Source: Bacillota bacterium (GTDB taxonomy: Bacteria > Bacillota > JADQBR01). Taken from it: 32,149 nt of DNA. A model generated the notes under the pieces. It did not search any database. It was not told where the DNA came from and worked only from the letters and a program-made list of their open reading frames with translations. The DNA is taken from positions 1-32,149 of the forward strand of contig JADQBR010000063.1 in assembly GCA_016278515.1 (NCBI GenBank). Direction: 5' to 3'. This document shows, piece by piece, positions 2,631 through 32,149 of this stretch. Each line of letters begins with the position of its first letter. Positions within the stretch are counted from its first letter, which is position 1. A program made the translations under genes and the position numbers.

Positions 2631-2771
2631 GAAAACCGTTTTGGCAAGCCAAAGTGGTTCTATTGATTATAACAGGATTTATTGTTCTAAATGTTGAAGT
2701 TACTTATACTTACAGAAAAAGGTTATAGAATGTGCATGTGCGTTAGAATATAAGCTAAAGAGGTTTTGTTG

Positions 2772-3230: not shown

Positions 3231-3249
3231 ATATGGGGGTGTTGAATTG

Positions 3250-6936: not shown

Positions 6937-6947
6937 GGGGAAGCGAC

Positions 6948-9839: not shown

Positions 9840-9848
9840 GGAAATTAG

Positions 9849-11837: not shown

Positions 11838-11838
11838 C

Positions 11839-12546
11839 ATGACTAAACCGGTAGGATTTTGCCAAAAGATAAAGTTGGATCATCTTGATTATATAGCAAA
11901 TAAGGCAAGAAACACAGAACGTAAGAAAATGTATAAGATACTTGGTGAGTATTTATTGAGTGACATACAAGGAGTTCGAAGTAGGACACAGGCTATCACA
12001 ATGCTAATGAAGATATGGTTCTTGGTGGATGAAGAACATGAAGATTTAAGAAACAGGGCCTCTGATATTCTAATGTCATGTACTCCCCAGGAAAAGGTTA
12101 TTTTACACTGGGGTATGACCATGCTGGCATATCCTTTTTTTAAAGATGTTGCTTACGAAGTAGGCAAGTTATTTAAGTTGCAAAATGAGGTATCTAGTCA
12201 TAATATTGGACGAAAAATGAAAGCTTTATACGGAGATAGACGTAGAGTAGAGGTGGCTAGAACTGCGGTGTTGCTAAGCATGAAAGAATGGGGAGTTATT
12301 CAGCCAATAAAACCAAGCATATATACTTTAGCGGAAAAAAGGGAAGTAGTAAGTCAGGAACTAAAGCTTTGGCTGGCCGAGGTTATCGTACGTGTATCTG
12401 AATACAGTTCAATGCCAATTGATATGGTCGTTTCTGCACCAAATATTTTTCCTTTTAATTTTTCACTAAATATTAGGGAAATGGATGAAAGTTCTTTGAG
12501 TGTTAATCGCCAAGGGCTTGACATTCAAATGGTAGGGATTAAGTAA
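11839..12546 (+). CDS. Small helical BREX protein, BrxA-like (NusB-fold candidate)
   Basis: This all-helical protein of about 235 residues sits between pglZ and brxHII, within the set of genes where BREX-3 loci carry brxA. A central block resembles the general layout of BrxA/DUF1819: SRTQAITMLMKIWFLVDEEH, VILHWGMTMLAYPFFKDVAYEVG, then YGDRRRVEVARTAVLLSMKEWGVI, the last like a winged or NusB-type DNA-binding helix pair. BrxA is known as a DNA-binding NusB-like protein, but I identify it here by context and helical pattern only. ATG 11839 fits AGAGAGG at 11822-11828; ATG 11830 is too close to that site. Confidence 0.5.
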   Translation: MTKPVGFCQKIKLDHLDYIANKARNTERKKMYKILGEYLLSDIQGVRSRTQAITMLMKIWFLVDEEHEDLRNRASDILMSCTPQEKVILHWGMTMLAYPFFKDVAYEVGKLFKLQNEVSSHNIGRKMKALYGDRRRVEVARTAVLLSMKEWGVIQPIKPSIYTLAEKREVVSQELKLWLAEVIVRVSEYSSMPIDMVVSAPNIFPFNFSLNIREMDESSLSVNRQGLDIQMVGIK

Positions 12547-12552
12547 ACATGT

Positions 12553-12585
12553 ATCCTCCCTTAAAGTACCCCAGGGAGGATTTTT
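12553..12585 (+). terminator. Terminator-like hairpin before brxHII
   Basis: ATCCTCCC (12553-12560) and GGGAGGAT (12574-12581) pair in an 8-bp stem with a 13-base loop, followed by a run of five T. It lies between the BrxA-like gene and brxHII, so it may lower helicase expression relative to the upstream genes. The loop is long, so termination may be partial. Confidence 0.6.
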
Positions 12586-12622
12586 ATCTAAGAAGCATGA
12601 ATGAAGGACTGGGGGGGAAGTC

Positions 12623-15600
12623 GTGTTAAAAGCGGGAGAGATAGTTAGAGGTTCGCAATTTCCAGAAACAGTTGAAATAAAAAAATGCGAAGTTATAGAT
12701 GATAATTATCTGATTATTGAGGCTTTAGGGCGCGAAACACAAAAATATTACGAGCTTTTACTTGACAGGGATCAATTTGATCAACTGCAACGTTTAACTG
12801 CTAGAAATTTGCAACAGCTTACACATGTTGAATTGCAGCATATATTACAGTTCAAACAATTTCAAGTAGAAAAGAAGTTTTCATCTTCCCGTGCTATAGG
12901 GGGAGGAAATCTACTGCCATTACCCCATCAGATAGAAGCCGTCTATAGTACGATGCTTCAGGTACCGCAGGTGCGTTTCTTACTAGCAGATGACCCTGGT
13001 GCCGGCAAAACCATTATGTCCGGTATGTTAATTAGAGAGCTGCTGGCGAGATTTAGTATAGAACGGATACTAATTCTAGTTCCCCCATTGGTATTAAAGC
13101 AATGGCAGGAAGAACTTAATGGAAAGTTCAATTTATCCTTTACCATTATCAACCGGGAAACATTGCGGTCAGCTACTACCAACCCGTTTGTTGAAAATAA
13201 TTTTTGTCTATCTTCTATGTACTGGGCGGCCAGGGATGATATTAAAAGTTTTATAAATGAGGCTGACTTTGATCTGATAATTGTTGATGAGGCGCATAAA
13301 ATGGCCGCATATACCCATGGAATTAGGAAAAAGAAAATAAGCCGAACAAAACTATATCAGTTAGGGGAAATGATTTTACGCCAAGCAGAGCACTGCTTGC
13401 TACTAACAGCAACACCACATAAAGGGGACCCGGAGAACTTTAAACATCTTATGAGATTGGTAGATCAAGATATCTTTTCTAACCTTAATGCCACTGACTC
13501 TCTGCGAGAAAAAAGCAATCCTTTTATAATACGTCGCTTGAAAGAAAGCATGAAAAACTTTGACGGGACACCAATATTCCCCAAGAGAATAACCAAAACC
13601 ATTACATACGAATTATCTGATCCAGAACTTGAACTATATGAGGCAGTCACTGATTATGTGCGATATTATTTTAACAGAGCGATAAACAAAGGAAATAATA
13701 GTACGGCTTTCGCAATGATGCTTTTACAGCGGAGATTAAGTTCGTCCATTGAAGCCATCCATTTATCCTTAATACGTAGGAGAGGCAGGTTAAATGAATT
13801 ATTAAGTAAAACACTTGATGAACGTGAGAAGTATTTGCATCAATTAGATAAAATTGATCTTGACGATTTTGATGATGAAGCTGCCGATTATCAGGAAAAG
13901 ATTGAAGAAAAACTGGAGCAGGCTTTTGACAATATAGATTTAGGTGAACTGAAAACAGAGCTGCAGAAGCTAGAGCAGTTGATAGACAAAACTTCATTTT
14001 TAAGGGGAAGCATCATAGAGCGAAAATATGAGGAACTGGAATCCACACTATTTAAAGTTAACGGCCTTCTAAATCAAGGGGAAAAGATTATTATTTTTAC
14101 GGAAGCGGCAGATACTTTGCGTTATTTAGAAAATAGACTGCTGCAACATTTACCCCAAGTTGCAAAGATTGTTGGCAATTACTCAATGGAAAAGCGGCAC
14201 CGTCAAGTAGAGTTTTTTCGTGAGGAATGTCAAGTAATGCTTGCCACAGATGCTGGCGGTGAATCAATTAACCTACAATTTTGCAACCAAATGATTAATT
14301 ATGATATTCCCTGGAACCCCAATAAACTGGAACAGCGTATGGGACGTATTCACCGTATTGGGCAGAAAAAAGACGTGGCTGTGTTTAATCTAGTTGCTCA
14401 AAACACCCGCGAGGGTGATGTAATGATGCGATTACTGGATAAGATGGAACAGATGCGCGAAGATTTAGGTTCCGATCTCGTATACGATTTTATTGGAGAG
14501 GTACTTGAAGAGTATTACGGTAATTTAGCTTCGTTAATGCAAGAGGCAATTGTTAACCGCGAAGATCTTAATGAGATTATTACCGGGATGGATAAGAGGC
14601 TAACTGAAGAGCATGAGAAATTAATTGAAATTGTAAAGCAGGAACGATTAAGTGCGGATGCTATTGATTTACCAGGGATGCGAAGAGAACAAAATGACCT
14701 AATTATTAAGCGCATTCCGATTAACAGCTGTCTTAGCTTTGTTAGTCATGTGTTAGAAAAGAACAAAGTCAGAGTATATGATTCTGCAGAAGGCAAGGTG
14801 AAAAGGATTGAACGCCTGCCTAAATTCATTCGCGATTTTTCCAGGAAACACAATATTCCATTATCAACAGCGCATTCATATCGTTTTACTGGTTCTAAAG
14901 ATTATGAAACAGATCAGATTGAGTTACTTACATTTGATAAGCCAATATTTCAACTAAGTTTGGAACTGGCCCAAAGAGAAAGCGAAAAAATAGCATTAGA
15001 ACAGTATAGGGTTTCTTACCCTACATCTGAACATCTTCAAGTGGAGATTTATGAGGTAGGTATTGTGGATGGTACAGGGAAAGAGTTGGCTAGTGAACTA
15101 ATTCATCTTGGTAAGAGGCAGAATGACACGGTAATTTTATTGGATCCATACTGGCTTTTTCAAGAAGATTTTGAAGGGGATTGCACGAAATTATCTAAAG
15201 AGACAGGGGCTTCTTTAAATGCAGTTTCTTTTCAAGTTGCTAAAAATGTAAGAGAACGGATCAAGGTTAAAAGAGAAAAGCAGTTAAATAAAATAAGTAA
15301 ATTTCTATACCGCGCATTTGAGAGACAGTACAATGAAACACTTGAGAAACTTGCTGGTTATCAAGGTGATAACAAAGATAACCGAAACAGTGCACTTATA
15401 AATCAGATGAATGCAAGGTTGATTGATATTGATGCAAGACGAAATGAGCGTTTGGCTGAAATAGAACGCCAAAAAAATATTGTCATGAAACCTCCGAAGC
15501 GTCTTGTGCAGTTGGATGTAGTTCCAAATGGTCAGGCCGCTAGAAGTTTCAATGTTGATTTCAAAGATATAGTTGAGCATTATGAGTTAGTCAATGGCCG

Positions 15601-15826
15601 TAGGCTTATGAAAACATATGATAATTTGGCCTTAGTTGACTTCTACAGTGAACGGTATAATGGGGAACCTAGGTTTATCATCATTTCAGAACAAGCTAAT
15701 CCGCGGTTCAGTGAGGAGTATATGGAACATCTAAAAGACATTTTGGATAGTACTTATGTATATTTAATCCATGATAGTGCGGTTGTTTCAGAAAAAGCTA
15801 TGGTTAATGAGGTGACTTTATGGTAG
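12623..15826 (+). CDS. brxHII: BREX type 3 SNF2/DEAH-type helicase BrxHII
   Basis: This SF2 helicase of the SNF2-like class has 1067 residues. Motif I is DDPGAGKT at 123-130, motif II VDEAH at 221-225, motif III LTATPHKGD at 261-269, and motif VI QRMGRIHRIGQ at about 572-582. A coiled-coil insert (roughly 400-470, acidic DLDDFDDEAADYQEKIEEKL) separates the two RecA lobes. The C-terminal 450 residues include a basic helical region near 880-960 and a final domain reading YELVNGRRLMKTYDNLALVD. It should translocate on DNA as part of the BREX machine. GTG 12623 follows GGGGGGGAAG at 12611-12620. It is separated from the other BREX genes by the hairpin at 12553. Confidence 0.87.
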   Translation: MLKAGEIVRGSQFPETVEIKKCEVIDDNYLIIEALGRETQKYYELLLDRDQFDQLQRLTARNLQQLTHVELQHILQFKQFQVEKKFSSSRAIGGGNLLPLPHQIEAVYSTMLQVPQVRFLLADDPGAGKTIMSGMLIRELLARFSIERILILVPPLVLKQWQEELNGKFNLSFTIINRETLRSATTNPFVENNFCLSSMYWAARDDIKSFINEADFDLIIVDEAHKMAAYTHGIRKKKISRTKLYQLGEMILRQAEHCLLLTATPHKGDPENFKHLMRLVDQDIFSNLNATDSLREKSNPFIIRRLKESMKNFDGTPIFPKRITKTITYELSDPELELYEAVTDYVRYYFNRAINKGNNSTAFAMMLLQRRLSSSIEAIHLSLIRRRGRLNELLSKTLDEREKYLHQLDKIDLDDFDDEAADYQEKIEEKLEQAFDNIDLGELKTELQKLEQLIDKTSFLRGSIIERKYEELESTLFKVNGLLNQGEKIIIFTEAADTLRYLENRLLQHLPQVAKIVGNYSMEKRHRQVEFFREECQVMLATDAGGESINLQFCNQMINYDIPWNPNKLEQRMGRIHRIGQKKDVAVFNLVAQNTREGDVMMRLLDKMEQMREDLGSDLVYDFIGEVLEEYYGNLASLMQEAIVNREDLNEIITGMDKRLTEEHEKLIEIVKQERLSADAIDLPGMRREQNDLIIKRIPINSCLSFVSHVLEKNKVRVYDSAEGKVKRIERLPKFIRDFSRKHNIPLSTAHSYRFTGSKDYETDQIELLTFDKPIFQLSLELAQRESEKIALEQYRVSYPTSEHLQVEIYEVGIVDGTGKELASELIHLGKRQNDTVILLDPYWLFQEDFEGDCTKLSKETGASLNAVSFQVAKNVRERIKVKREKQLNKISKFLYRAFERQYNETLEKLAGYQGDNKDNRNSALINQMNARLIDIDARRNERLAEIERQKNIVMKPPKRLVQLDVVPNGQAARSFNVDFKDIVEHYELVNGRRLMKTYDNLALVDFYSERYNGEPRFIIISEQANPRFSEEYMEHLKDILDSTYVYLIHDSAVVSEKAMVNEVTLW

Positions 15827-16207: not shown

Positions 16208-17965
16208 ATGAGATACGTTCCTTCCTTCTTGTCTGAAACGAAAATGGCTGGTGAACAATACTTTATAGTTTTATGGTTAGAATTATTTCATAAGCTTTCA
16301 ATAGACACTTATAGATTTCGTGCTATGAATTCGCATTTTATATTGATTGAATTATTACAGGTAACAAAGCTTGTTGAGAAAAGAGTTTGGAATGAACAAA
16401 ATGTTAGCCTGGTCTGTGAAGAAGCCATAACCTTGGTAGATAAGGATCAAGTTTTATTAAATAGGAACTATTTTGATGGGCTAAAAATAGTCTTAAATCA
16501 GTGCTTGAAAAAAGAGCCAGAATCAAAAAATAGAATGAAAGCAGTATTGCCTGCAGTTTTGGATGACCTTCAAATAAACTATTTAAGGGATCTTAAAACG
16601 GGCTTAAGCCAAGCTATACAAGCTAATCATTTTCAAAAAGTGCATTGGTATACGAATGCGTTAGCTACAGAAGCAGCGAATTTAGGTTTTAGTAGAGAAT
16701 ACTTATATAATTTGTGTAAACAAATATTTTTAAAAAATGATAGTGAAAGCTTTTCTGATAAGTACCGGCAATTTATAGAGAATATAATTCCTAGAAGTAA
16801 GCAATATCAAACCTACTTAAAGCTGTACCCCAATAAACCTCAAGTAGTACCTGACCGTATAGCAGATTATACCTTTAGTAAGTCCTTACAAAATATAGAA
16901 ACAGAAGACTATCTTACTAGAGATTACTTATCTAGTGGTGACCCTAAAGTATTTGCTATAACTAAAATTCAAGCATTAGACCCAAACTCTGCTGCTACAA
17001 TGGCTAGGTCTAAAATTGGCAAAGTGTTGGATCTTATGTATTATGGTTATCAGCATAATACTAAGGTAGATGTTCATGAGAATTGTTTAATCCAATTAGA
17101 AAACAGTTTCAATTTATACCCTTCCATCCCTGAACTTGTCGGTTACTTTAAAGACGGCTCTGATTGGCTTCTTACCGTTGAGAAACAACTTGAAACTATT
17201 TTAGAGAGGCCTAGAGCAGATGACCTATCGACAGAAAAACTTTTAGGAGCCTTACGGTATTTCCGGCTTAGTAAAGAAGCAGTAAATATTGAACATCAGT
17301 TTTTAAATTTATGGATTGCATTAGAGCATTTAGCCCAAAGTGATACAAAAATGTTTGAAGCATTAAATAATTATATTCCAAAGACATTAGCATTACAGTA
17401 CATAGGTAAGCTGATCAGAGACATGATAGAAAACTTAAAGAGATGTAAAGTGCGAGTGCCTGAAGCAGTACAACCATATATAAGCAAGAACAATAAAGAG
17501 AAATTTATCTTGTTAGCCAGGAATGATGATTTATTTTCAAAGTTACTATTAAGTGCGGATTCAAATCCATTGCTTCAACAACGGCTGGTGCACTTAAGAT
17601 CTGTGCTATCTAATTCCAAGGAAATGCGGCGAGCTATCAATAAGAACTATACTGATATTCGACTTCATCTATTTAGGATGTATAGGGTAAGAAACCTTAT
17701 AGTCCACACTGCAGCTCATGATTTGCAAATCGAGGGATTAACAGCTAATTTACAAGCATATTTAACTGACATTATCAACAAAGCTTTATATGAACTATCC
17801 TCATATGATTACTTAACAGGATTATATGACGTCTTTTCAAAGTATCAATTTACCTTTGACCAAGTAATGCTGAAGCTGAAAAAAGATGGAGATAAGAATT
17901 TAATAGACGTAGCTCACATAATTAACCCATTCAATTTACTGTGGCCTGAAAAAGAAGTGATTTAG
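16208..17965 (+). CDS. HEPN-motif protein (ApeA-like), candidate abortive-infection RNase
   Basis: The protein has 585 residues, is mainly helical and has no membrane segment. Near residues 494-500 it reads RVRNLIVH, an R-N-x3-H arrangement that is the active-site signature of HEPN ribonucleases. Before it, at about 360-375, NIEHQFLNLWIALEHLAQ resembles the first helix of Apea-type HEPN domains (F-x2-L-W-I-A-L-E). The N-terminal 350 residues are unassigned and may be the sensor. HEPN RNases commonly cleave RNA to arrest infected cells. The position just after the BREX operon supports a defence job. ATG follows GGAGG at 16195-16199. It is separated from brxHII by 381 bases, so it is probably expressed on its own. 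Confidence 0.62.
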   Translation: MRYVPSFLSETKMAGEQYFIVLWLELFHKLSIDTYRFRAMNSHFILIELLQVTKLVEKRVWNEQNVSLVCEEAITLVDKDQVLLNRNYFDGLKIVLNQCLKKEPESKNRMKAVLPAVLDDLQINYLRDLKTGLSQAIQANHFQKVHWYTNALATEAANLGFSREYLYNLCKQIFLKNDSESFSDKYRQFIENIIPRSKQYQTYLKLYPNKPQVVPDRIADYTFSKSLQNIETEDYLTRDYLSSGDPKVFAITKIQALDPNSAATMARSKIGKVLDLMYYGYQHNTKVDVHENCLIQLENSFNLYPSIPELVGYFKDGSDWLLTVEKQLETILERPRADDLSTEKLLGALRYFRLSKEAVNIEHQFLNLWIALEHLAQSDTKMFEALNNYIPKTLALQYIGKLIRDMIENLKRCKVRVPEAVQPYISKNNKEKFILLARNDDLFSKLLLSADSNPLLQQRLVHLRSVLSNSKEMRRAINKNYTDIRLHLFRMYRVRNLIVHTAAHDLQIEGLTANLQAYLTDIINKALYELSSYDYLTGLYDVFSKYQFTFDQVMLKLKKDGDKNLIDVAHIINPFNLLWPEKEVI

Positions 17966-19817: not shown

Positions 19818-21065
19818 TTAAAAAGAGGAACTGCATACGGTGCAGCTTTTTTTATAAATGATAAAGTAAGTTTCTACCTCACCAATACCTTTAATATATA
19901 CTTCACCTCTTTTTTCACAGTGATATTTTCTCCTAACCCTCTCATATAGCATGCTGGATATTTGTATCTGTCCTTCTACACCGCTGGATTCCATTCTGGA
20001 AGCGATATTAACAGTCTCACCCCATATATCATATATGTATTTCCTTTTACCTAAGACTCCTGCGACTACCGGACCGGCATTTATGCCTATTCGCAACTGA
20101 AGTTCCCTATTCATAAATTTTAGTTTTTTGATCTCCTCTCGCAAGTATAGTGCAAAGTCAATTAAGTTTTCCAGGTGATTGGAGTCGTTCTGAGGGAGTC
20201 CGGAGGCAACCATGTATGAATCACCGATAGTTTTTATCTTCTCCAGTTTAAACTTATCAATTAGGTCATCAATGAAAAAGTAAATATTATTCAGCTCGTT
20301 TGCTACCTGTACGGCAGTAACATTGGCGGTGGATTTTGTGAAACCAACTATATCGGCAAATAATACGCTAGCGTCCTCATAGTCATCCGCTATTACTTGC
20401 TTTCCGGACTTAAGTTCTTCCGAAACCTTAACAGGCAAAATATTCATTAAAAGATTTTCCGACTTTTTTCTCTCCTTCATTAGTGATTGTTCGATGCGGA
20501 TATTAGTTTTTTGTAAATCATAGATTATCAGTAGTAAAATTGTGGGCACTAAAGTAACCGTGGTTAGGTACCCTATGGTTGCTTGAATTGGAGGCATTAT
20601 TGGCTTTATGTACCATAAATGAAAATATACTTCCATAGCAACCAGCAGTAGCAATGAAAATAAGGAAAAAATATATTTTAGTCTTCTCTCAACTATAAAT
20701 ATTGTATAGGGAATAACACATAAGATTATCAAATAAAGGTCAAACCCAGTGTTTCTTCCCATTAGTAGGGAGGCCGCAGTTATTTGCCCGTTTGCTGTTA
20801 TCAGCAGTATTAGCTTGGAGATAAAATGCTTTTCACGAAAACTACCGTAGAAGGCTAAACAATACAAGATCAGGGGGATACCGTTAAATACATACGCTTT
20901 GTATTGAATGTGCGCCTCAACGGTAGGGTTTATATAGGTTTGTATGATGAAAAATATGGAGGCAAAAATAGTAATAATTAGTATCCTGTTCTTAAAATAG
21001 TTTGCCTTGGTACTTAAGTCTGATATATCTTCAGAAATTCCTGCATACAAAACCTTCTTTATCAT
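19818..21065 (-). CDS. Membrane-bound class III adenylate cyclase
   Basis: This protein of 415 residues has about six hydrophobic helices in the first 182 residues (for example 27-43, 59-74, 84-100, 108-124, 131-150, 163-182). A coiled linker SLMKERKKSENLLMNILP follows, then a full class III catalytic domain at about 225-405. Metal-binding aspartates are D238 (FADIVGFTK) and D282 (KTIGDSYMV). K278 and D346 (YDIWGETVN) are the pair that selects ATP, and N353 and R357 complete the transition-state site. All residues needed for catalysis in a homodimer are present. It should make cAMP in response to a membrane or lipid-phase signal. GGAGG lies seven bases before the ATG. It is divergent from the sigma-factor operon. 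Confidence 0.88.
   Translation of the reverse strand: MIKKVLYAGISEDISDLSTKANYFKNRILIITIFASIFFIIQTYINPTVEAHIQYKAYVFNGIPLILYCLAFYGSFREKHFISKLILLITANGQITAASLLMGRNTGFDLYLIILCVIPYTIFIVERRLKYIFSLFSLLLLVAMEVYFHLWYIKPIMPPIQATIGYLTTVTLVPTILLLIIYDLQKTNIRIEQSLMKERKKSENLLMNILPVKVSEELKSGKQVIADDYEDASVLFADIVGFTKSTANVTAVQVANELNNIYFFIDDLIDKFKLEKIKTIGDSYMVASGLPQNDSNHLENLIDFALYLREEIKKLKFMNRELQLRIGINAGPVVAGVLGKRKYIYDIWGETVNIASRMESSGVEGQIQISSMLYERVRRKYHCEKRGEVYIKGIGEVETYFIIYKKSCTVCSSSF
19831..19853 (+). terminator. Terminator hairpin at the 3' end of the adenylate cyclase gene
   Basis: CTGCA (19831-19835), loop TACGG and TGCAG (19841-19845) are followed by a T run (19847-19853) on the plus strand. On the minus strand the hairpin lies in the last codons of the cyclase gene and is followed by CCTCTTTTT, so it could act in both directions. 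The stem is short. Confidence 0.45.
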
Positions 21066-21376
21066 ATAGAGCCTCCTTCGGCAGATAATCTTCGAGAACT
21101 TCGCACCTGGTTAATCTGACAAGCCCCTTTCTCTTATAAAATCCAAAAAACAATCGGCCAGACATTACCATTTTCTGTATGCACGAAGAAATCCCCTTTA
21201 TTTGTTGTCAGGCTAATTCATTAGCATAAACATCAAAAATGAAAGGAATTAAAAAAAAAACTATATTTTATATGCAACCTTTTGTTATGATGACTGTGTC
21301 TAATAGGTAGTACAGTAATTCTTATTTGATGTTTAGCTTGAATTTGCGTCGTCAGTTTGGGTGGAGAGGGATACAG
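21066..21376. other. Divergent intergenic region between cyclase and sigma-factor genes
   Basis: It holds the ribosome site of the cyclase at its left end, an A-rich stretch near 21250, and the ECF-type promoter at 21273-21301. I see no RNA gene or hairpin that I can support, and no clear promoter for the cyclase. Confidence 0.5.
21273..21301 (+). promoter_or_regulatory. ECF-type (probably autoregulated) promoter
   Basis: TGCAACCTTTT at 21273-21283 and GTCTAAT at 21298-21304 look like the -35 AAC motif and -10 GTC motif used by many ECF sigma factors, about 75-100 bases before the sigma gene. The spacing (AACC to GTC, 18 bases) is close to normal. Recognition by its own product is inferred. 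Confidence 0.5.
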
Positions 21377-21952
21377 ATGAAAAGTGAAGCCGAAATTGTA
21401 GTTGGGTTAAAAAATACAGAGGAATGGGCTGTGGATGCAGTTATTTTCCTTTACGGAGACCGGCTTTTTCGTAGCGCCGTTGCTATAACAGGCGATTGGC
21501 AGTTGGCGGAGGAAGTGGTACAAGATACGTTTATCCAGATGAGCCGGAAGATACATTCTTTCAAACAGCGGTCCTCACTGCAAACGTGGATGTTTAGTAT
21601 TACTATAAACATTGCCAAAAACCGTATCCGTTCAACCTGGATAAGAAAGGTGTCTACCTGGGGTGATAGTGAAGAGGGTTATTTATCGGGCGACAGTAAT
21701 GATTCCACGCCTGAAACGGAGTTTATTAAAAAGGAGCAACATAATGAAATTATTCACTGTCTGCGGGAGCTCCCGCAGAAATATCATGCTGTAATGGCTC
21801 TGTACTACTTGGAGGATTTTACTATAAAACAGATAAGCGAGATACTTAAGGAACCTGAAGGAACGATAAAAAGCAAACTTTCCCGGGGAAGAAACATGCT
21901 TAAGGACGGACTGCAGGTGAAAGGAGTGGTAGCCGGTGACATATCAAGATAA
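21377..21952 (+). CDS. ECF-subfamily RNA polymerase sigma factor
   Basis: From ATG 21377 (191 residues), region 2 contains DAVIFLYGDRLFRSAVAI and AEEVVQDTFIQMSRKI (core binding and -10 recognition), with QTWMFSITINIAKNRIR after it. Region 4 contains YYLEDFTIKQISEILKEPEG and TIKSKLSRGRNMLK, the -35-reading helix-turn-helix. Length and architecture are normal for an ECF factor. The start is chosen because GGAGAGGG lies at 21363-21370; the in-frame ATG 21326 has no comparable site. It overlaps the next gene by 17 bases, which fits a sigma/anti-sigma pair. Confidence 0.9.
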   Translation: MKSEAEIVVGLKNTEEWAVDAVIFLYGDRLFRSAVAITGDWQLAEEVVQDTFIQMSRKIHSFKQRSSLQTWMFSITINIAKNRIRSTWIRKVSTWGDSEEGYLSGDSNDSTPETEFIKKEQHNEIIHCLRELPQKYHAVMALYYLEDFTIKQISEILKEPEGTIKSKLSRGRNMLKDGLQVKGVVAGDISR

Positions 21953-22301
21953 GGAAATGAAGGATTATATACGATCCACCAGAGACGAAATTCACCTCAC
22001 TGATGCTCAAAAACAGCGCATGAAGCAGACTGTAATGGCGGAGCTTACCCGCCGCAGGCAGAGCGGGGCCGTTAGATTACGGCATAAAATTCAAGATTTA
22101 ATGGACACAACCTACGAAATATCGTTTGTACCGGTTGTAACGGGAGTCTGCGCTCTACTGTTGCTCATTAACTTTTCTTTTCTGGCACCGCTGGTATTGC
22201 AGGAACCGGTAGCGAAAAAAACTTATTATTTACAGCAAGTTACTACAGATCCTGACGGCGATATGAGAATTGTTTATCAAACAGTTGTTAAGGAGGACTA
22301 G
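21936..22301 (+). CDS. Single-pass membrane protein, probable anti-sigma factor
   Basis: This protein of 121 residues has a charged cytoplasmic part (about 1-65, MTYQDKEMKDYIRSTRDEIH then LTRRRQSG), one transmembrane helix (FVPVVTGVCALLLLINFSFL at about 67-86) and a short outer tail. That is the topology of ECF anti-sigma factors, though the HxxxCxxC zinc motif of the ZAS class is missing. Position and overlap with the sigma gene carry most of the argument. GTG 21936 follows AAGGAG at 21921-21926. Confidence 0.6.
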   Translation: MTYQDKEMKDYIRSTRDEIHLTDAQKQRMKQTVMAELTRRRQSGAVRLRHKIQDLMDTTYEISFVPVVTGVCALLLLINFSFLAPLVLQEPVAKKTYYLQQVTTDPDGDMRIVYQTVVKED

Positions 22302-22304
22302 GCT

Positions 22305-24590
22305 ATGTTAACTGTGAGAGTAAAGGGAAAACATATTGTCGGTGCCGTTTTAACCCTCGTTATTGTATTACTAATTGGTTATGGCGCTGCGCCTGGCCTT
22401 ATATATTCTAGGGCAAAGGCATTGGCTGTTGATGGTAAAGGAGAGCAGGCCCAGCAGTACTATGATTTTATTGCTGAACGGTTTCCTTATTCAGGCAGCG
22501 CTGTTAGTGCCTTGTGGAGTTCGGCCCAGTACGACTTGCATGGCACGGATGGTATAGCAATGATATATATCTACCCAAGTTCCACCGGAACAGGGACGGG
22601 TACGGCTGGTGAGGCCGGTCTTAGAAGTGCAATAGAAAAATTTAAAGCCCTGCGGGAGCGTTACCCGGAGTCGCGGTGGGCAGAGCATGCAATGAGGGAG
22701 ATAGGGAATGCATATTATCAATTAAATGACTATGATAAAGCTATTAAGTATTTGAGGGCTTCTGTAAAAGACACTGAAATGCAGGAGGTGCAGAGTACTG
22801 AATTGTTGGCGAAGATATATATTGAACAAGGAGATTATCAAAAAGCTTTGGATTTAGCCGATAAAAGTTTGGGTATCCGGCCCAATCAGAACCCGCTGGC
22901 CATAATGAAGGTAAAAGGAGAAGCACTAACAGGCTTAAAACAGTGGGAAGAAGCCCGAGCGTTGTTTGATGCAATACCTCGGAAGGCAGAACAAATTTAC
23001 ACCGAGCATCTTCAGGACGAGTCGGAGGAAACAATAAAATTGAACATAACAAACTGGGAGGATATTGCAAGGGGCAATATTCAGAAAATAGGTATGCTGC
23101 AAGCTAATCAGGGGAAGCTTGGCAATATTACCGGAACAGTTTTATTTGGAGACAAACCTGCTGAAGGGGTTAAGTTGTTTCTCATAGACCGTTTGTTCCA
23201 GCCCGATTATTTTACAGGCAACGTACGTGATTTGCCATCTACCGTATCTGACAATGCAGGAAAGTATGAATTTAGCAGTTTACAACCCGGAAAGTACATT
23301 ATCGCTGTGGGTGTCATGCCTGAACGTATTCAGGGATATACTTTATCGTTGCGGGAAGAAGAAATTGAACTCAAGGCGGATGAAAATGCTGCCTTTGATT
23401 TGAGATTTGTCCCTACAATTAGGTTATCTTCCCCGGACAGCGGGGAAACGGTGGCCGAGAATGTTACTTTCAGATGGGAACCGGTGAAAGGTGCCGATCA
23501 TTATGACATTTTTCTGGGACCAGTGCAGCGTAAAGAAGACGGTTCTATAACCGGCACGTACACCGGTACGTTTAAAGATAACATCACAGATACAGAATTA
23601 AGCGTAAATATTGGGAGTGAATTTGAAAAATACCGCCTGCGGAGGTCAGTATCATATAATTCCGAAGGTAAGCCGGATCCATCCTCCGTACTAGGACTCT
23701 TTCATCCCGGAGGAGAATACACATGGGGTGTAAATGCATTTGATGTCGAAGGTAACCGTTTGAGCAGCAGCGCCGGATATGGTTTCTTCCAAAAGGAAAA
23801 AGACCTGCCTCTTTTTAAGATTAGTGAAGAAAAGTTAACTAAGGGTGACCGTTTGGTATTAAAAGGTGATTACCTCAAGGCCATAGATGCTTATGAAGAT
23901 CAATTGGCGCAAAATCCCGAAGACGCTGATGCATTGCTGACGCTTGCCCGGCTTTATGACTTCGGCACCACTAGGGATAATAGAAATTACGCCAAGGCGG
24001 CGGAATACTACCAACGACTGCTTCAAGTGTGGAATATTCCGGAAGTTTATGAGGCTTTAGGTGCTGCATATTATAATTCTCAACAGTATCAATTGGCCTG
24101 GGAGGTTTATACTTCGCTGTTCGAACATGATACAACGAACTGGCTTGCCTATCACCAGTTGGCTAAGACAGCGGTACATCTTAATAAACCTGCGGAAAGA
24201 GTTCTGTCATTGTTGGATAAAGCTTTGATCCAAGCAAACGGTAAGTACGTCAGAGTTTACCCAGTAACGCTGAGTTTGCTTCTAGGAAATACCGACCGAG
24301 CAATTATGTATGCTGACAAAGTAGATGAGGGTAATAATTATAAAGGATTGCTTAAGGAACTGCTTCAGAAAGGTATGGAGCCCCGAAGCGAGTTTGCTGA
24401 AGCAATTGCAGCCGGAGAATACCAAACAGCAGAGAAATATTTAGGTAGCACAGATTACGATAATTTTTTGAAAGCACTATTGACCTACTTGAACAGTTCT
24501 CAATACACATCGCGAGAGCAAATACAAAGTATTGAAAGACAGTTGGATACTCCTCTTTTAAGCCAACTACTTCGTCAGATGTTTCTATAA
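22305..24590 (+). CDS. Membrane-anchored TPR / carboxypeptidase-regulatory-like surface protein
   Basis: The protein has 761 residues. One N-terminal transmembrane helix (HIVGAVLTLVIVLLIGYGAA, 10-29) anchors the remainder, probably outside the cell. TPR-like helices at about 43-70 and 105-225 (NAYYQLNDYDKAIKYLRAS; KIYIEQGDYQKALDLADKSL) are followed by a beta-sandwich of the carboxypeptidase-regulatory/CNA-B type at 273-370 (GNITGTVLFGDKPAEGVKLF; DNAGKYEFSSLQPGKYIIAV). A fibronectin-III-like part comes at 371-490 (TFRWEPVKGADHYDIF), then a second TPR set at about 515-700. It starts three bases after the anti-sigma gene, with AAGGAGG at 22288-22294. It could be the effector or sensor of the sigma system; the mixed domain order is unusual. 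Confidence 0.75.
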   Translation: MLTVRVKGKHIVGAVLTLVIVLLIGYGAAPGLIYSRAKALAVDGKGEQAQQYYDFIAERFPYSGSAVSALWSSAQYDLHGTDGIAMIYIYPSSTGTGTGTAGEAGLRSAIEKFKALRERYPESRWAEHAMREIGNAYYQLNDYDKAIKYLRASVKDTEMQEVQSTELLAKIYIEQGDYQKALDLADKSLGIRPNQNPLAIMKVKGEALTGLKQWEEARALFDAIPRKAEQIYTEHLQDESEETIKLNITNWEDIARGNIQKIGMLQANQGKLGNITGTVLFGDKPAEGVKLFLIDRLFQPDYFTGNVRDLPSTVSDNAGKYEFSSLQPGKYIIAVGVMPERIQGYTLSLREEEIELKADENAAFDLRFVPTIRLSSPDSGETVAENVTFRWEPVKGADHYDIFLGPVQRKEDGSITGTYTGTFKDNITDTELSVNIGSEFEKYRLRRSVSYNSEGKPDPSSVLGLFHPGGEYTWGVNAFDVEGNRLSSSAGYGFFQKEKDLPLFKISEEKLTKGDRLVLKGDYLKAIDAYEDQLAQNPEDADALLTLARLYDFGTTRDNRNYAKAAEYYQRLLQVWNIPEVYEALGAAYYNSQQYQLAWEVYTSLFEHDTTNWLAYHQLAKTAVHLNKPAERVLSLLDKALIQANGKYVRVYPVTLSLLLGNTDRAIMYADKVDEGNNYKGLLKELLQKGMEPRSEFAEAIAAGEYQTAEKYLGSTDYDNFLKALLTYLNSSQYTSREQIQSIERQLDTPLLSQLLRQMFL

Positions 24591-26139: not shown

Positions 26140-26146
26140 TGTCGAA
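26140..26146 (+). promoter_or_regulatory. Possible Spo0A box
   Basis: TGTCGAA, the Spo0A core consensus, sits in TTTTTGTCGAAAATTGATG about 90 bases before the riboswitch. A single 7-base match can occur by chance, so regulation of the YD-repeat gene by Spo0A is only a suggestion. Confidence 0.3.
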
Positions 26147-26232
26147 AATTGATGACAAAAAATACCATGTAAAAAGCAGGAAATAATCGAAGTGTCCCGA
26201 ATATTCAGGCTAATACCGTAAAAATAAAATAT

Positions 26233-26338
26233 AAGTACCCGAAAAGGCAAACCCCGTGAAAACGGGGGACGCAAAGCTACGGGTCTAAAGCCAAGTAAGT
26301 TGGCTATGGCCGCCGAGCTGCCGAAGGTAAAAGTACTT
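26233..26338 (+). ncRNA. Cyclic di-GMP-I (GEMM-I) riboswitch
   Basis: The aptamer signature is present in order: closing stem AAGTAC (26233-26238) with GTACTT (26333-26338), AAGGCAAACC, P2 hairpin CCCCGTGAAAACGGGG with a GAAA-type loop, GGGACGCAAAGC, GGGTCTAAAG, and the P3 part AGCCAAGTAAGTTGGCT. The base before CAAACC is G, as in c-di-GMP-binding rather than cAMP-GMP-binding variants. It lies about 190 bases upstream of the YD-repeat gene on the same strand and should couple its expression to c-di-GMP. Confidence 0.93.
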
Positions 26339-26465
26339 TTTCTATCTATCAGAAGAATAAACCCTAAAGACATTAGGGTAACTACGCTCCTGACTGTGGC
26401 TGATGCCTACTCTTGCTAAGTGTGGGTTAGGCAATAAAGTTGGCAAGTTATCTGGCCAATCATAC

Positions 26466-26504
26466 TTTTACCGTACTCAAGGCAGCTCCTTGGGTACGGT
26501 AAAA
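26466..26504 (+). terminator. Strong leader hairpin between riboswitch and YD-repeat gene
   Basis: TTTTACCGTAC-T-CAAGG (26466-26482) pairs almost perfectly with CCTTG-G-GTACGGTAAAA (26488-26504) around a five-base loop. ATGTTTTAAGGAG follows: a weak U-tract that runs into the ribosome site. It is the best candidate for the expression platform of the riboswitch, either as an attenuator or as a translation-control hairpin. Confidence 0.6.
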
Positions 26505-26526
26505 ATGTTTTAAGGAGTTGTTTTTA

Positions 26527-29500
26527 GTGAAGCGCCAATTAATATTAAGAGCCACAGCTATCATACTCTCGGTAGCCATGCTACTTACCGGAACAGTAAC
26601 ACCCGCCATGGCAGCAGGAGTTCCCATGGTTCAAGACACTACCATACCACCCCTCTTTGATCCTTATGAGCTGACAGGCTTAACCGGTTGGCAGGAAATG
26701 CTGTCGTCTCCGGGAGAACATCTCCCAGATCCCGATAGTGTAGCACCCCAGTTTCCCAAAATAGATTTAAAGACATTAAATAACAGCGACGAATATTACG
26801 GATATATAGACCCGGTAACCGGAATACTGACCATGAACAAAGAAGACCTAACTTACCCCTCTACAGGCATTTCACCCAGCATTTCCCGAAGCTTCATGAG
26901 GCAGGAAGAAATTAAAGGGCTGCTGGGTTATGGCTGGAACTTTCCCTATGACCAGTACCTCCAGATGTATCAGGACTTTATCATTATGGAATACCGTGGC
27001 GACGGTAACCACCGCACCTACGAATTTACCAAAGACGACCCCGACCTAATCATAGATTCCTTTGACGGAGACCCCTTAATCTACTACCCCCTAGACCAGG
27101 GGACATATACCGAGGTAAGTTCAAGGGCCGACCTGACACGAAACCAGGACGGTACCTACACCGTCGAAGAAAAAGACGGATACAGCTACAAATATAACGG
27201 CTACAAAGCACCTTGGCGGAACCAAGAAGCCGATGCCGGAAGGCTAATATCCATTACCGACCCAAACGGCAATACCATAAGTTTAAGCTACGACTCAGAC
27301 GGAAGCTTAAACCTTATCACCGACACCGCCGGACGAGACATAGCAGTAGAAACCGAGAACGGTTTAATCAAGAAAGTAACTGATTCCTTAGGGAGAGAAT
27401 TAGCCTACAGCTATGACAGCAGCCAAAACCTAAAAAAGATAATACTACCCGACGGTAGCAGTGAAAGCTTTGACTACGATACTAATCATAGACTGATATC
27501 CTACACGGATACATTAGAAAGAACATATAACTATCAATACGATAGCCAGGGCCGGGTAACCCGCGTAGAAAATCAGGACGGGACCCTGTTAGAAGCCATA
27601 CAATACGTAACCGGCGACGAAGAAAGCCATGCCGTCATTACCAACTCCAAGGGACTAGAAACAAAGCTTTACTGGAATGAAAACAAAGAGATTACCAGAG
27701 AGACCAACAACCTGGGAAAAGACAAGGGCTACACCTATGACGAGGAAGGAAACAAAGAAAGCATTACCGACCAGGACGGCAGTGTTACCAGTTATGAGTA
27801 TGATGACAAACGAAGGAAAACAAAAGTAATCTACGCAGACGGTGAAACAACAGAATATCTTTATGAGGACAACTTTGACAAGCTGACCAAGGTTATTAAT
27901 CCCGACGGCTCAGAAATAAGCTATAGCTATGACGAGAACGGCAACCTGATCTCTGAAACCGATGCCTTAGGCAATACAACTACCTACCAATATGACCAAC
28001 AAGGAAACAGAACATCAGTCACCGATCCTAAAGGAAACACCACCACATACCACTACGACAGTTACGGAAACCTGACTAAGGTAACCAATGCCTTAGGAGA
28101 AACAACACAATTCACTTACGATGCAGCAGGGAGGAAACTATCCCAAATAAGTCCCCAGGGAGAAGAGGCATTCTTTACCTATGACCAAAGAGACCGCATC
28201 ATTTTAGTAACCGACCAATTAGGTAACGAAACAACCTATACCTATAACCCGGCGGGGAAAGTAACCCAAATAACCGATGCCCAAGGAAACCAGTACAACT
28301 TTGAGTACAATTCCTTAGGACGCTTAGAAAAAGCAACTGCACCAAATGGAAACAGTCAAAGCTACACCTACTATGACAGCGGCTTGGTGCACACCGCAAC
28401 TGATAGTTTGGGAAATACCCACACCTTTGAATACAATGCCCGGGGACAAGTAACCAAGATAACCGACCCCGGTGGAGAGACTACCGAAATAGCATATGAC
28501 GCCCAAGGAAACCGTAGCCAGCTTATCAATCCTGATGACGGGATTATTAGCTATGACTATGACCAATTCAAAAGGCTAACTAGTGTAACATATCCCAAAG
28601 GAATTACCGTCAATTACGGTTATGACATCATGGGAAACCGTACTTCTGTCACTGACGGCAAAGGAAATGTTACCACCTATCAATATGACGCTAACGGCAG
28701 GTTGATTAAAAAAGTAGATCCCCAAGGCGGGGAAATCACCTACAACTATGACGAAAACGGCAACCTGTTAGAAGAGAACTACCCCTTGGAAGGCGGCATA
28801 AGCTATGTCTATGATGCCTTAAACAGAGAGACCGCAGTCATTAACGCCAAAGGAAACCAAACAAGCTACCAGTACGATCAAAACGGTAATCTTATAGAAG
28901 TTACCGACACTCTAGGTAACACCCACCGGTATTCTTATGACCCGGCAGGAAATATGGTGGAGTATAAAGACGCCGGTGATAGTAACTACAGCTACCAATA
29001 CGATACATTAAGAAGGCTTAAAAAACTAACAGATCCTAAAGGTAACGAGACCCTTTATGAGTATGACGCAGTAGGTAATCTATTAAAGATAACCGATGCC
29101 AAAGGAGAGAGCAGCCTCTTTACCTATAACCCTCTGGGACAGATAGAAAGCATTACCGACCCCAGGGGATATACCACCGATATAGAATACGATTATCAAA
29201 ACCGCACGACAAAGATAACGGATTCCGAAGACAATAGTACCACCTACCGCTATAACTTTAGAGGAGACACAAAAGAAATAACTGACGCTAAGGGACACAC
29301 CACTACTTACAATTATGATCAAACAGGATTAATATCAGAGATTATTGACCCAGCCGGAAGCAGCATTACCTTTGGTTACAACTCCCGGGGCGAAACTACC
29401 CGCATTAATGACAGAAACGGTAATATCACCCGATACTATTACGATGCCCGGGGTAATGTTACTAGGGTATTAGAGCCCGAAGGAAACATTACAACATATG

Positions 29501-32149
29501 AATATGATTTGGCCAACAGGTTGGTCAGTATCACCGACCCCACAGATCGGACTCTTCAGTTTGCATACAACAATCTTGGGGAAATAACCCGGGAAATAGA
29601 CCCTTTGGGTAACGAAAAAAACTATGAATATGACCCTTTGGGCCGTCTGACAACAGAAACAGACCCCAGAGGTAACAGCTACCGGTATCAATATGACCAC
29701 CTGGGTAATGTAACCCAGGTAACCGACCCCCAGGGAGATGCAACACAATACAGCTATGATAAACTAGGCAACTTGACAGAAGTAAGAGACCCCTTGAATA
29801 ATACCCAAAGCTACCGGTATGACTCACTAAGCAGAATCATAAAAAGCATTAACCCCGTGGGAGCAGAGAAAACATACAGCTATGACCCGGTAGGTAATAT
29901 CTTAGAAATAACTGATCCTTTAAACAACAGTACCCAATACAGGTACGATTTTAGAAACAACATTACCCAAGTCATGGACGCCCTAGGTAACGTCACCAGC
30001 TATGAATATGATGTACTAGGCAACCTAACAGACGTTATTGATGCCAACGGAAATACTACCCAACTGGAATATGACAGTTTAAACCAGATCATAGAAGAAA
30101 TTAATCCCCTTAACCAAAGAATTCGCTACGGCTATGACAAAGCCGGAAACATGATCCAAAGAATAGACCCCAAGGGACAGATAACAGAATATAGCTATGA
30201 CAAGAATAACCGTTTGACAGGTATCAATTACAACAACCAGGACTTTAGCCAATTTAGATACTATGCCAACGGCCAAGTAGGCAGCATGGTAAGTCCTGCC
30301 TTACATGAAGAATATGAATACGATGGAGCCGGTCGGCTGGAGAAAGTAATAGACGTGAGAAGAGATAAGACAATAGAATATACCTATGACTCAGCAGGAA
30401 ACCGCACTTCCATTACAGATGTCGAAGACCGGACAACCTCTTATAGCTTTGACAGCAGAAATCAGCTCAGCACCCTTACAGACCCTGATGATAATACTAC
30501 CTTTTTTGACTATGACCCGGTAGGTAAAGTTACCCAAACCGTCAGGTCAAACGGAATAAACACCGGCTATAACTATGACCCGGCCGGTCAGATAAATCTA
30601 ATCGAAAACAAAGGCGAAACCGGCATAATTTCAAGTTTTAATTACCAGTATGACCTTGCGGGAAACCGTACCCGCCAGGTGGAAGAAGACGGAGCCGTTA
30701 CCACCTACCAGTACGATGCACTGTACCGGTTAACCAAGGTGAATTACCCCTTGGATAAAATAGAAGCTTTAAGGGAGCAGTATCTCCCGGAAGCACCGGA
30801 AATGAAATTACCAAGAAACCAGACCTTACCAGGAGAAACTGATACTGAGACAGAAAAGGAAAGTAAGGGTAACGGTAATGGAAATGCTAAAGGAAAAGAA
30901 AAACAAACTGCGGTATTAAGTATTGATATAATTAACCGAATTGAAACTGCTCCAACTGACATGAACTTCCTTCTTGCCAAAGGCGGAAATGGCAATGGCA
31001 ATAGTAATGACAATGGAAACAACGGTTCTAAAGATAAAGGCGAAAGCAGTAAAGATAACGGCAGTTCCGGTAACAATAGCGGCAATAGTAGTTCAAAAGA
31101 AAAAGAAAACAGTGGAAACGGCGGAAACAGCAGTTCCAATAATGGGAGTTCTGGTAATAACGGTAACCCTACTGATAAGCCGGGGAATAACTCAAATAGC
31201 GGCAAAGATAACGGAAATAGTAATAACGGTAAGAATTCTACCAAGGAAAAAGGAACTAACAAAGACAACCCCGGTAACGGTAAAGGAAAAGATAAGGATA
31301 AAGAACATCCGGGCCAAGGAAAAGGTTTAGGGAAAGATAAACGTGGCGGCAAGTGGCGTAACTTAGAGGAAAGCGCTTTGCTGGCAGATACTACGACCAT
31401 AGATTTACCTGAATACTTAATGGAACCCACCGGCGAAGCAGTCTTTACCTACGACAGCGTAGGAAATCGCCTGTCCATGACAACGGACGCCGGTAAGATA
31501 GAGTACAGCTATGATAGAGCCAACAGGCTTTTAACGGCAGGGGATACCAGTTATGAGTACGATGCTAACGGTAACCTAATATACAAAGCGGAAGACGACG
31601 GCACCAGGATCGAATATGCCTATAACGCTGCCAATAAGATGACAGACGTTTATTTTGAAGATGGAACGGATTTAAAGTATGCCTATGACGGCTACGGCCG
31701 AAAAGTCTTAAGAGAAGAAACCTACTGGCAGGAAAACGGCAATAGCGGAAACAGTAACAGCAATGGAAACGGTAACGGTAAAGGACAGGAGAAGAAGGCC
31801 GAAAAGAGCCTTAAGTTAAGAACAGAAGAGACGGCCTACCTCTATGACGGCAAAAAACTAATCAAAGAATATACAGGAAATGGCAGTCCCCTGGCAGAAT
31901 ATCATTTAGGAACAGACAGCGTCATATCCCGGAAGATGTTCGGCTATCACGGGAGAAAAGAACAGGGTAAACCCACCCTGCAAACCCGGGGCGGGTTGAT
32001 GTACTATAGCTTTGACGCTTTAGGTAACGTAACGGACCTGACCGATCGGACCGGAGAGACAATTACCCAGTTTCGCTTCAGTGCCTTTGGCAGTATGTAT
32101 GCCGGCACCCTGGCGCCGTATAACTTCATGGGACTGACCGGGAAGCACT
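26527..32149 (+). CDS. Giant secreted RHS/YD-repeat protein, 3' end outside the window
   Basis: GTG 26527 follows AAGGAG at 26512-26517, and the frame is open to the window end (1874 codons). A signal peptide (MKRQLILRATAIILSVAMLL, cleaved near AMA-A at about 30) sends it out. After an N-terminal domain of about 200 residues (GYIDPVTGILTMNKEDL; LGYGWNFPYDQYLQ), dozens of YD repeats of the type (S/T)Y-x-YD-x2-GN-(L/V)-x3-T/ITD run to the end and should fold into the hollow RHS/teneurin cocoon. At about residues 1438-1610 (30840-31360) a low-complexity Asn/Gly/Ser/Lys insert interrupts the repeats, with a short echo near 1737-1755. The last residues, FRFSAFGSMYAGTLAPYNFM then GLTGKH, are the RHS core end, so a variable C-terminal toxin or tip would follow just outside. 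Expression is probably set by c-di-GMP through the riboswitch. Related proteins: WapA and other wall-associated RHS proteins. Confidence 0.92.
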   Translation, partial: MKRQLILRATAIILSVAMLLTGTVTPAMAAGVPMVQDTTIPPLFDPYELTGLTGWQEMLSSPGEHLPDPDSVAPQFPKIDLKTLNNSDEYYGYIDPVTGILTMNKEDLTYPSTGISPSISRSFMRQEEIKGLLGYGWNFPYDQYLQMYQDFIIMEYRGDGNHRTYEFTKDDPDLIIDSFDGDPLIYYPLDQGTYTEVSSRADLTRNQDGTYTVEEKDGYSYKYNGYKAPWRNQEADAGRLISITDPNGNTISLSYDSDGSLNLITDTAGRDIAVETENGLIKKVTDSLGRELAYSYDSSQNLKKIILPDGSSESFDYDTNHRLISYTDTLERTYNYQYDSQGRVTRVENQDGTLLEAIQYVTGDEESHAVITNSKGLETKLYWNENKEITRETNNLGKDKGYTYDEEGNKESITDQDGSVTSYEYDDKRRKTKVIYADGETTEYLYEDNFDKLTKVINPDGSEISYSYDENGNLISETDALGNTTTYQYDQQGNRTSVTDPKGNTTTYHYDSYGNLTKVTNALGETTQFTYDAAGRKLSQISPQGEEAFFTYDQRDRIILVTDQLGNETTYTYNPAGKVTQITDAQGNQYNFEYNSLGRLEKATAPNGNSQSYTYYDSGLVHTATDSLGNTHTFEYNARGQVTKITDPGGETTEIAYDAQGNRSQLINPDDGIISYDYDQFKRLTSVTYPKGITVNYGYDIMGNRTSVTDGKGNVTTYQYDANGRLIKKVDPQGGEITYNYDENGNLLEENYPLEGGISYVYDALNRETAVINAKGNQTSYQYDQNGNLIEVTDTLGNTHRYSYDPAGNMVEYKDAGDSNYSYQYDTLRRLKKLTDPKGNETLYEYDAVGNLLKITDAKGESSLFTYNPLGQIESITDPRGYTTDIEYDYQNRTTKITDSEDNSTTYRYNFRGDTKEITDAKGHTTTYNYDQTGLISEIIDPAGSSITFGYNSRGETTRINDRNGNITRYYYDARGNVTRVLEPEGNITTYEYDLANRLVSITDPTDRTLQFAYNNLGEITREIDPLGNEKNYEYDPLGRLTTETDPRGNSYRYQYDHLGNVTQVTDPQGDATQYSYDKLGNLTEVRDPLNNTQSYRYDSLSRIIKSINPVGAEKTYSYDPVGNILEITDPLNNSTQYRYDFRNNITQVMDALGNVTSYEYDVLGNLTDVIDANGNTTQLEYDSLNQIIEEINPLNQRIRYGYDKAGNMIQRIDPKGQITEYSYDKNNRLTGINYNNQDFSQFRYYANGQVGSMVSPALHEEYEYDGAGRLEKVIDVRRDKTIEYTYDSAGNRTSITDVEDRTTSYSFDSRNQLSTLTDPDDNTTFFDYDPVGKVTQTVRSNGINTGYNYDPAGQINLIENKGETGIISSFNYQYDLAGNRTRQVEEDGAVTTYQYDALYRLTKVNYPLDKIEALREQYLPEAPEMKLPRNQTLPGETDTETEKESKGNGNGNAKGKEKQTAVLSIDIINRIETAPTDMNFLLAKGGNGNGNSNDNGNNGSKDKGESSKDNGSSGNNSGNSSSKEKENSGNGGNSSSNNGSSGNNGNPTDKPGNNSNSGKDNGNSNNGKNSTKEKGTNKDNPGNGKGKDKDKEHPGQGKGLGKDKRGGKWRNLEESALLADTTTIDLPEYLMEPTGEAVFTYDSVGNRLSMTTDAGKIEYSYDRANRLLTAGDTSYEYDANGNLIYKAEDDGTRIEYAYNAANKMTDVYFEDGTDLKYAYDGYGRKVLREETYWQENGNSGNSNSNGNGNGKGQEKKAEKSLKLRTEETAYLYDGKKLIKEYTGNGSPLAEYHLGTDSVISRKMFGYHGRKEQGKPTLQTRGGLMYYSFDALGNVTDLTDRTGETITQFRFSAFGSMYAGTLAPYNFMGLTGKH

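What the first reader, a model, noticed from the sequence alone, without database searches (positions are those of the whole stretch)
26233..26526. c-di-GMP riboswitch with a long leader controlling a giant YD-repeat protein
A clear GEMM-I aptamer is followed by about 190 bases ending in a 16-bp-class hairpin whose weak U-tract merges with the ribosome site. This links the sessile/motile switch to a secreted RHS protein, and the distance leaves room for a further RNA element.
Basis: partly seen in the sequence, partly recalled or inferred. Interest (0 to 1): 0.62.

Follow-up and report, generated by a model that had tools for sequence, protein, structure and literature searches.

The report
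c-di-GMP riboswitch controlling giant RHS protein
A well-formed RNA sensor for the bacterial signal c-di-GMP sits in front of a giant secreted RHS/YD-repeat protein gene; the same pairing recurs in relatives, but here the downstream hairpin looks built to expose or hide the ribosome site rather than to stop transcription as it does in the relatives.

Summary
The aptamer is real: a strong c-di-GMP-I (GEMM-I) match at 26236-26325, followed by a 17-bp hairpin at 26466-26504 and the gene for a secreted RHS/YD-repeat protein (GTG at 26527). The hairpin is not a proper terminator: it has no U-tract. The sequence fits a strand exchange instead. The strand just after the aptamer (26326-26335) is perfectly complementary to the hairpin's 5' arm region (chance about 5e-5). 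When those pair, the hairpin's loop and 3' arm can form an alternative hairpin (26483-26520) that buries the Shine-Dalgarno and is followed by U5. Ligand should lock the aptamer, allow the 17-bp hairpin and free the ribosome site (ON switch). This is inferred from folding only. The 127-nt stretch between aptamer and hairpin shows no significant structure. The RHS link is not accidental: 17 of 63 DUF6531-RHS loci in the phylum have a same-strand GEMM-I aptamer within about 5 kb upstream (0.23 expected), in five families. The relatives have ordinary U-tract terminators, predicted OFF. Side result: Spo0A boxes are enriched upstream of GEMM-I riboswitches in this phylum, including here. Known class, recurrent target, probably a variant platform.

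The parts
26140..26159 (+). two Spo0A-box-like sites: TGTCGAA (26140-26146) and TGACAAA (26153-26159)
   Evidence: read in sequence; TGTCGAA enriched upstream of GEMM-I aptamers, 8 against 0.44 expected in the family loci and 4 against 0.13 in other families; Spo0A gene present
26176..26204 (+). sigma-H-like promoter GCAGGAAAT N11 CCCGAATAT
   Evidence: pattern match; consensus from general knowledge; inference
26236..26325 (+). c-di-GMP-I (GEMM-I) aptamer
   Evidence: RF01051, 88.8 bits, E 1.4e-16
26236..26239 (+). strand P: UACC, pairs GGUA 26326-26329 (lower P1) in the ligand-bound fold
   Evidence: sequence complementarity; inference
26326..26335 (+). strand A: GGUAAAAGUA, pairs with P when ligand is bound, otherwise with T
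   Evidence: 10-nt perfect complement of 26463-26472, chance 5e-5
26336..26462 (+). 127-nt stretch between strands A and T; weakly structured, no second RNA element found; absent from the G001 and G234 orthologs
   Evidence: fold z -1.69; Rfam negative; ortholog leaders of about 59-80 nt
26463..26482 (+). strand T: anti-hairpin partner (26463-26472) and 5' arm of the hairpin (26466-26482)
26466..26504 (+). 17-bp hairpin T:H, no U-tract; predicted to hold the anti-SD away from the ribosome site
26483..26520 (+). alternative hairpin that buries the SD (CAGCUCCUU pairs AAGGAGUUG), -14.1 kcal/mol
   Evidence: chance of a 12-bp run with G-U about 0.007
26521..26525 (+). U5 directly after the SD-burying hairpin: possible weak terminator, d about -11
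26512..26517 (+). Shine-Dalgarno AAGGAG
   Evidence: read in sequence
26527..32149 (+). secreted RHS/YD-repeat protein, GTG start, at least 1874 aa, runs off the contig
   Evidence: Pfam RHS_repeat x28 and DUF6531; translation with N-terminal signal-like segment

Best explanation
This is a c-di-GMP-I riboswitch controlling a giant secreted RHS/YD-repeat protein, one of a recurrent set of such pairs in this phylum. Most likely mechanism, by strand exchange: without c-di-GMP, strand A (26326-26335) pairs with strand T (26463-26472) as soon as T is transcribed; the loop and 3' arm of the would-be hairpin then fold onto the Shine-Dalgarno (26483-26520), so translation is blocked and transcription may also stop at the U5 just before the start codon. 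With c-di-GMP, A is held in the aptamer's basal helix, T pairs with H to give the 17-bp hairpin, the anti-SD is locked away and the ribosome site is open. The output is ON at high c-di-GMP. Shown by computation: the aptamer, the gene, the complementarities, the recurrence. Inferred: ligand binding, strand exchange in the cell, polarity.
For: Aptamer. RHS identity. Recurrence: 17 of 63 DUF6531 loci have a same-strand GEMM-I aptamer within about 5 kb upstream against 0.23 expected, in five families. A:T complementarity 10 nt perfect, chance 5e-5. Equilibrium per transcript length without ligand: A:T about 99% from end 26472 to 26500, and 0% with aptamer and P1 locked. Energies balanced: hairpin -24.0 against A:T -11.1 plus SD-burying hairpin -14.1. 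In the 3' domain to 26535, A free gives the SD-burying hairpin 79% and SD 5% unpaired; A blocked gives the 17-bp hairpin 99.5%. No U-tract after the 17-bp hairpin, but U5 after the SD-burying hairpin.
Against: For the whole leader the 17-bp hairpin wins at equilibrium even without ligand (about 92-99% once complete), so the OFF state would have to be kinetically trapped or the energies be slightly wrong. With A blocked the SD is only 20-25% unpaired; a second anti-SD (GCUCCU, 26386-26391) competes. The anti-SD complementarity is only modestly significant (0.007). The G001 ortholog uses a homologous hairpin as a true terminator, predicting the opposite polarity. No covariation is available: only one leader of this exact form was found.
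Confidence: 0.45

Rival explanations
1. Cd1-like OFF switch, as predicted for the relatives: c-di-GMP favours the aptamer, T:H then forms and works as a (weak or factor-assisted) terminator just before the SD.
For: Hairpin is homologous to the G001 ortholog's terminator (CCGUGCCAAGG..CCUUGGCACGG, U7, then GGAGG); all 16 related RHS leaders carry a hairpin followed by a U-rich tract, 15 of them with positive d-scores; A:T pairing is over-represented in the relatives (combined p about 5e-5, nonredundant).
Against: Tail AUGUUUUAAGG gives d -29; the bases that are U in the ortholog are A here and pair inside the stem.
Confidence: 0.2
2. Decayed riboswitch: the aptamer still folds, but the extra stretch and loss of the U-tract have uncoupled it, so the hairpin forms constitutively.
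For: Hairpin dominates at equilibrium in both states; a sister leader in G001 is followed by no RHS gene; the Bc1 riboswitch binds c-di-GMP without changing expression (PMC11218506).
Against: Aptamer scores highest of 13 in the genome; a perfect 17-bp hairpin and 10-nt A:T match without visible decay.
Confidence: 0.28
3. The leader carries a second regulatory RNA between aptamer and hairpin.
For: The 127-nt length; a 36-codon ORF (26403-26513) ending on the SD.
Against: Fold z -1.69, no Rfam match near gathering score, no homologous copy found.
Confidence: 0.07

Closest known systems
c-di-GMP-I (GEMM-I) riboswitch, Rfam RF01051; Cd1 OFF switch of Clostridioides difficile (PMC9262584)
   Same: Aptamer class; P-A-T-H strand order; anti-hairpin strand directly after the aptamer
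   Different: Cd1's T:H is a real terminator; here T:H lacks a U-tract and the predicted output is ON through the ribosome site
Bc1 c-di-GMP-I riboswitch of Bacillus thuringiensis with a long expression platform (PMC11218506)
   Same: Long platform; terminator-type hairpin formation goes with an exposed ribosome site; mixed transcription and translation effects
   Different: Bc1 has two typical terminators 28 bp apart; its downstream genes were not compared here; no response of expression to c-di-GMP was seen
GEMM-I leaders of RHS genes in relatives (G001, G234, G013, G059, G090, G097, G160, G185, G283)
   Same: Aptamer class and secreted RHS target; G001 hairpin is homologous
   Different: U-tract terminators close to the aptamer; none has the 127-nt stretch between aptamer and hairpin

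Membership tests
c-di-GMP-I riboswitch (RF01051) | Match to the covariance model above gathering score, full length | tested here: met
   88.8 bits against 35, positions 1-87 of 87
c-di-GMP-I riboswitch (RF01051) | G at the Vc2 G20 position and C at the C92 position (c-di-GMP rather than cGAMP type) | tested here: met
   G at 26246 and C at 26321 by alignment; Vc2 numbering mapped from memory
c-di-GMP-I riboswitch (RF01051) | Binds c-di-GMP | not testable with these tools
   needs in-line probing or ITC
c-di-GMP-I riboswitch (RF01051) | Expression platform mutually exclusive with the aptamer's basal helix | tested here: met
   strand A shared between P1 (26326-26329) and the A:T helix; computational only
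Rho-independent terminator (17-bp hairpin) | Stable hairpin directly followed by a U-tract | tested here: not met
   tail AUGUUUUAAGG, d -29
Translational riboswitch | Alternative fold sequesters the Shine-Dalgarno | tested here: met
   26483-26520 pairs AAGGAGUUG; SD 2-5% unpaired in that fold; in vivo untested
Secreted RHS/YD-repeat protein with DUF6531 | RHS repeats and DUF6531 above cut-off | tested here: met
   751 bits and 34.8 bits
RHS polymorphic toxin | Variable C-terminal toxin domain after the RHS core | not testable with these tools
   the contig ends inside the gene

The most novel reading that the evidence does not exclude
Within one orthologous set of c-di-GMP-controlled giant RHS genes, the expression platform has been inverted: a terminator hairpin predicted to give OFF in the relatives has lost its U-tract here and become an anti-anti-Shine-Dalgarno hairpin giving ON, under a promoter that also answers to Spo0A.
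Probability: 0.33. Interest if true: 0.6.

Novelty: new member of a known kind. Interest (0 to 1): 0.42.

Why it matters
It places giant secreted RHS proteins under c-di-GMP control as a repeated rather than isolated arrangement (17 of 63 loci, five families). If the switch polarity really differs between orthologs, it is a natural example of a riboswitch changing its output while keeping its sensor and its target. The enrichment of Spo0A boxes upstream of GEMM-I leaders suggests a joint sporulation and c-di-GMP decision layer that can be tested directly.

Tried and rejected
Terminator reading of the 17-bp hairpin: rejected as the main mechanism for lack of a U-tract. Second RNA element in 26336-26462: no support. 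cGAMP specificity: not supported (G at 26246). P:H pairing as a general antiterminator in the relatives: mostly not better than shuffles. 36-codon ORF 26403-26513 as leader peptide: no Shine-Dalgarno seen, length not unusual by chance. Literature searches for GEMM or c-di-GMP riboswitches with RHS or YD repeats returned no relevant paper in the held library; most subscription papers are not held.

Full report
Observation. Rfam finds one RNA family in the window, RF01051 c-di-GMP-I, at 26236-26325 with 88.8 bits and E 1.4e-16. It is the best of 13 such aptamers in this genome. The base aligned to G20 of the Vc2 aptamer is G and that aligned to C92 is C, the c-di-GMP rather than the cGAMP type (numbering mapped from memory). 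Downstream lie a 17-bp hairpin with a 5-nt loop at 26466-26504, a Shine-Dalgarno AAGGAG at 26512-26517 and a GTG start at 26527. The protein has 28 RHS-repeat stretches and a DUF6531 domain, a signal-like N-terminus, and runs off the end of the contig, which is the window itself.

The hairpin is not a good terminator. The stem is followed by AUGUUUUAAGG, and a d'Aubenton-Carafa-type score gives -29; the homologous hairpin in the G001 ortholog, CCGUGCCAAGG..CCUUGGCACGG followed by U7, gives +41. The stretch between aptamer and hairpin, 26336-26462, folds with z -1.69 (13 of 200 shuffles as good) and matches no Rfam family near its cut-off. There is therefore no support for a further RNA element.

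Anatomy of the switch. The ten bases right after the aptamer, GGUAAAAGUA (strand A, 26326-26335), are the exact reverse complement of 26463-26472, which overlaps the hairpin's 5' arm (strand T); shuffling the leader gives such a match in 5e-5 of cases. The first four bases of A also pair with 26236-26239 (strand P) as the aptamer's lower basal helix, so A has two mutually exclusive partners. If A takes T, the loop and 3' arm of the hairpin can pair with the ribosome site: CAGCUCCUU with AAGGAGUUG, extended by G-U pairs to 12, within a hairpin 26483-26520 of -14.1 kcal/mol. The chance of a 12-bp run is about 0.007. That hairpin is directly followed by U5 (26521-26525) and scores about -11 as a terminator, better than the 17-bp hairpin. 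Energies are balanced: -24.0 for the 17-bp hairpin against -11.1 plus -14.1 for the alternatives.

Folding along transcription. Without ligand, A:T is about 99% populated for transcripts ending from 26472 to 26500, and 0% if the aptamer and basal helix are locked. Once the hairpin's 3' arm is complete the 17-bp hairpin takes over at equilibrium (70% at 26504, 92% or more after that), so the ligand-free state would have to be kinetically held. In the 3' domain alone, to 26535, A free gives 79% SD-burying hairpin and an SD that is 5% unpaired, and A blocked gives 99.5% 17-bp hairpin. The SD is then still only about 25% unpaired; a second anti-SD in the intervening stretch (GCUCCU, 26386-26391) appears to compete. 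The best-supported model is thus a translational ON switch, possibly with coherent weak termination at U5, at confidence 0.45. An OFF switch through weak termination (0.2) and an uncoupled, decaying switch (0.28) remain.

Relatives. The N-terminal part of the protein finds orthologs in G001 (66% identity) and G234, and both have a c-di-GMP-I-type aptamer in a short leader with a U-tract terminator. I then fetched the region up to about 5 kb upstream of 60 further DUF6531 hits and scanned them. With the window, G001 and G234, 17 of 63 loci have a same-strand GEMM-I aptamer upstream, against 0.23 expected from the density. They come from five families in the phylum; several are paralogs or close relatives, so 17 is not 17 independent events. 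In most of them the aptamer directly precedes the RHS gene; in L148 other coding sequence appears to lie between aptamer and RHS gene, and in L183 the assignment is ambiguous. All 16 related leaders have a hairpin with a U-rich tail, 15 with a positive score. The A:T type of pairing is over-represented among them (combined p about 5e-5, nonredundant; the per-leader p-values come from 300 shuffles each), which predicts OFF at high c-di-GMP. P:H pairing was mostly not better than shuffles.

A second G001 leader (L015/L034) is 91% identical to the window over 26200-26347 but is followed by unrelated sequence and no RHS gene: an orphan leader. The G001 RHS gene downstream of the intact leader is split into two open frames.

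Upstream control. TGTCGAA at 26140 and TGACAAA at 26153 resemble Spo0A boxes, and GCAGGAAAT N11 CCCGAATAT at 26176-26204 resembles a sigma-H promoter. TGTCGAA occurs 8 times in the 150 bases upstream of 24 GEMM-I aptamers of the family against 0.44 expected, 4 times upstream of 27 aptamers from other families against 0.13, and once upstream of 29 cobalamin riboswitches against 0.25. The own genome has a spo0A gene. The control regions for the expectation are mostly coding sequence, and I did not test other intergenic classes.

Comparison with the known. The strand order is that of the Cd1 riboswitch, an OFF switch in which T:H is a terminator (PMC9262584). The nearest case with a long platform is Bc1 of Bacillus thuringiensis, where the terminator fold leaves the ribosome site exposed and transcription and translation are affected oppositely (PMC11218506). 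What differs here is the hairpin without U-tract and the SD-burying alternative. I found no paper in the held library linking a c-di-GMP riboswitch with RHS or YD-repeat genes, which is weak evidence of novelty because most subscription papers are not held.

Verdict. A genuine c-di-GMP-I riboswitch with a conserved type of target and a probably unusual platform. New member of a known kind; interest 0.42.

Noticed in passing
window 26140-26204 and upstream of other GEMM-I loci: Spo0A-box TGTCGAA is enriched upstream of c-di-GMP-I riboswitches in this phylum (8 against 0.44 and 4 against 0.13 expected), not clearly so upstream of cobalamin riboswitches (1 against 0.25).
   Followed up: partly
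window 2766-15826: BREX-type defence cluster: BrxF, BrxC/PglY, PglX, PglZ, BrxA and a DrmD/BrxH-like helicase.
   Followed up: partly
window 16208-17965: 585-aa protein with a weak ApeA match next to the BREX-type genes.
   Followed up: no
window 19818-21065: Adenylate/guanylate cyclase-domain protein, E 1e-58, on the minus strand.
   Followed up: no
window 21326-24590: Sigma-70 family (regions 2 and 4) protein followed by a small ORF and a TPR protein.
   Followed up: no
L160, L164, L168, L171: G013 GEMM-RHS leaders carry extra sequence between terminator and SD that begins and ends with near-complementary ends (GGCTCCGGAAATGACC / GGTCATTTACGGAGCC in L168), as in a small mobile element.
   Followed up: no
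L015/L034 and L044: G001 holds an orphan leader 91% identical to the window's without an RHS gene, and its RHS gene with the intact leader is split into two open frames.
   Followed up: partly
window 26403-26513: 36-codon ORF crossing the hairpin, with its stop codon overlapping the Shine-Dalgarno; no ribosome site seen before it.
   Followed up: no
G004:C115, G016:C15, G018:C13, G025:C16, G045:C5: Pairs of GEMM-I aptamers about 160-210 bases apart on one strand, probably tandem riboswitches.
   Followed up: no
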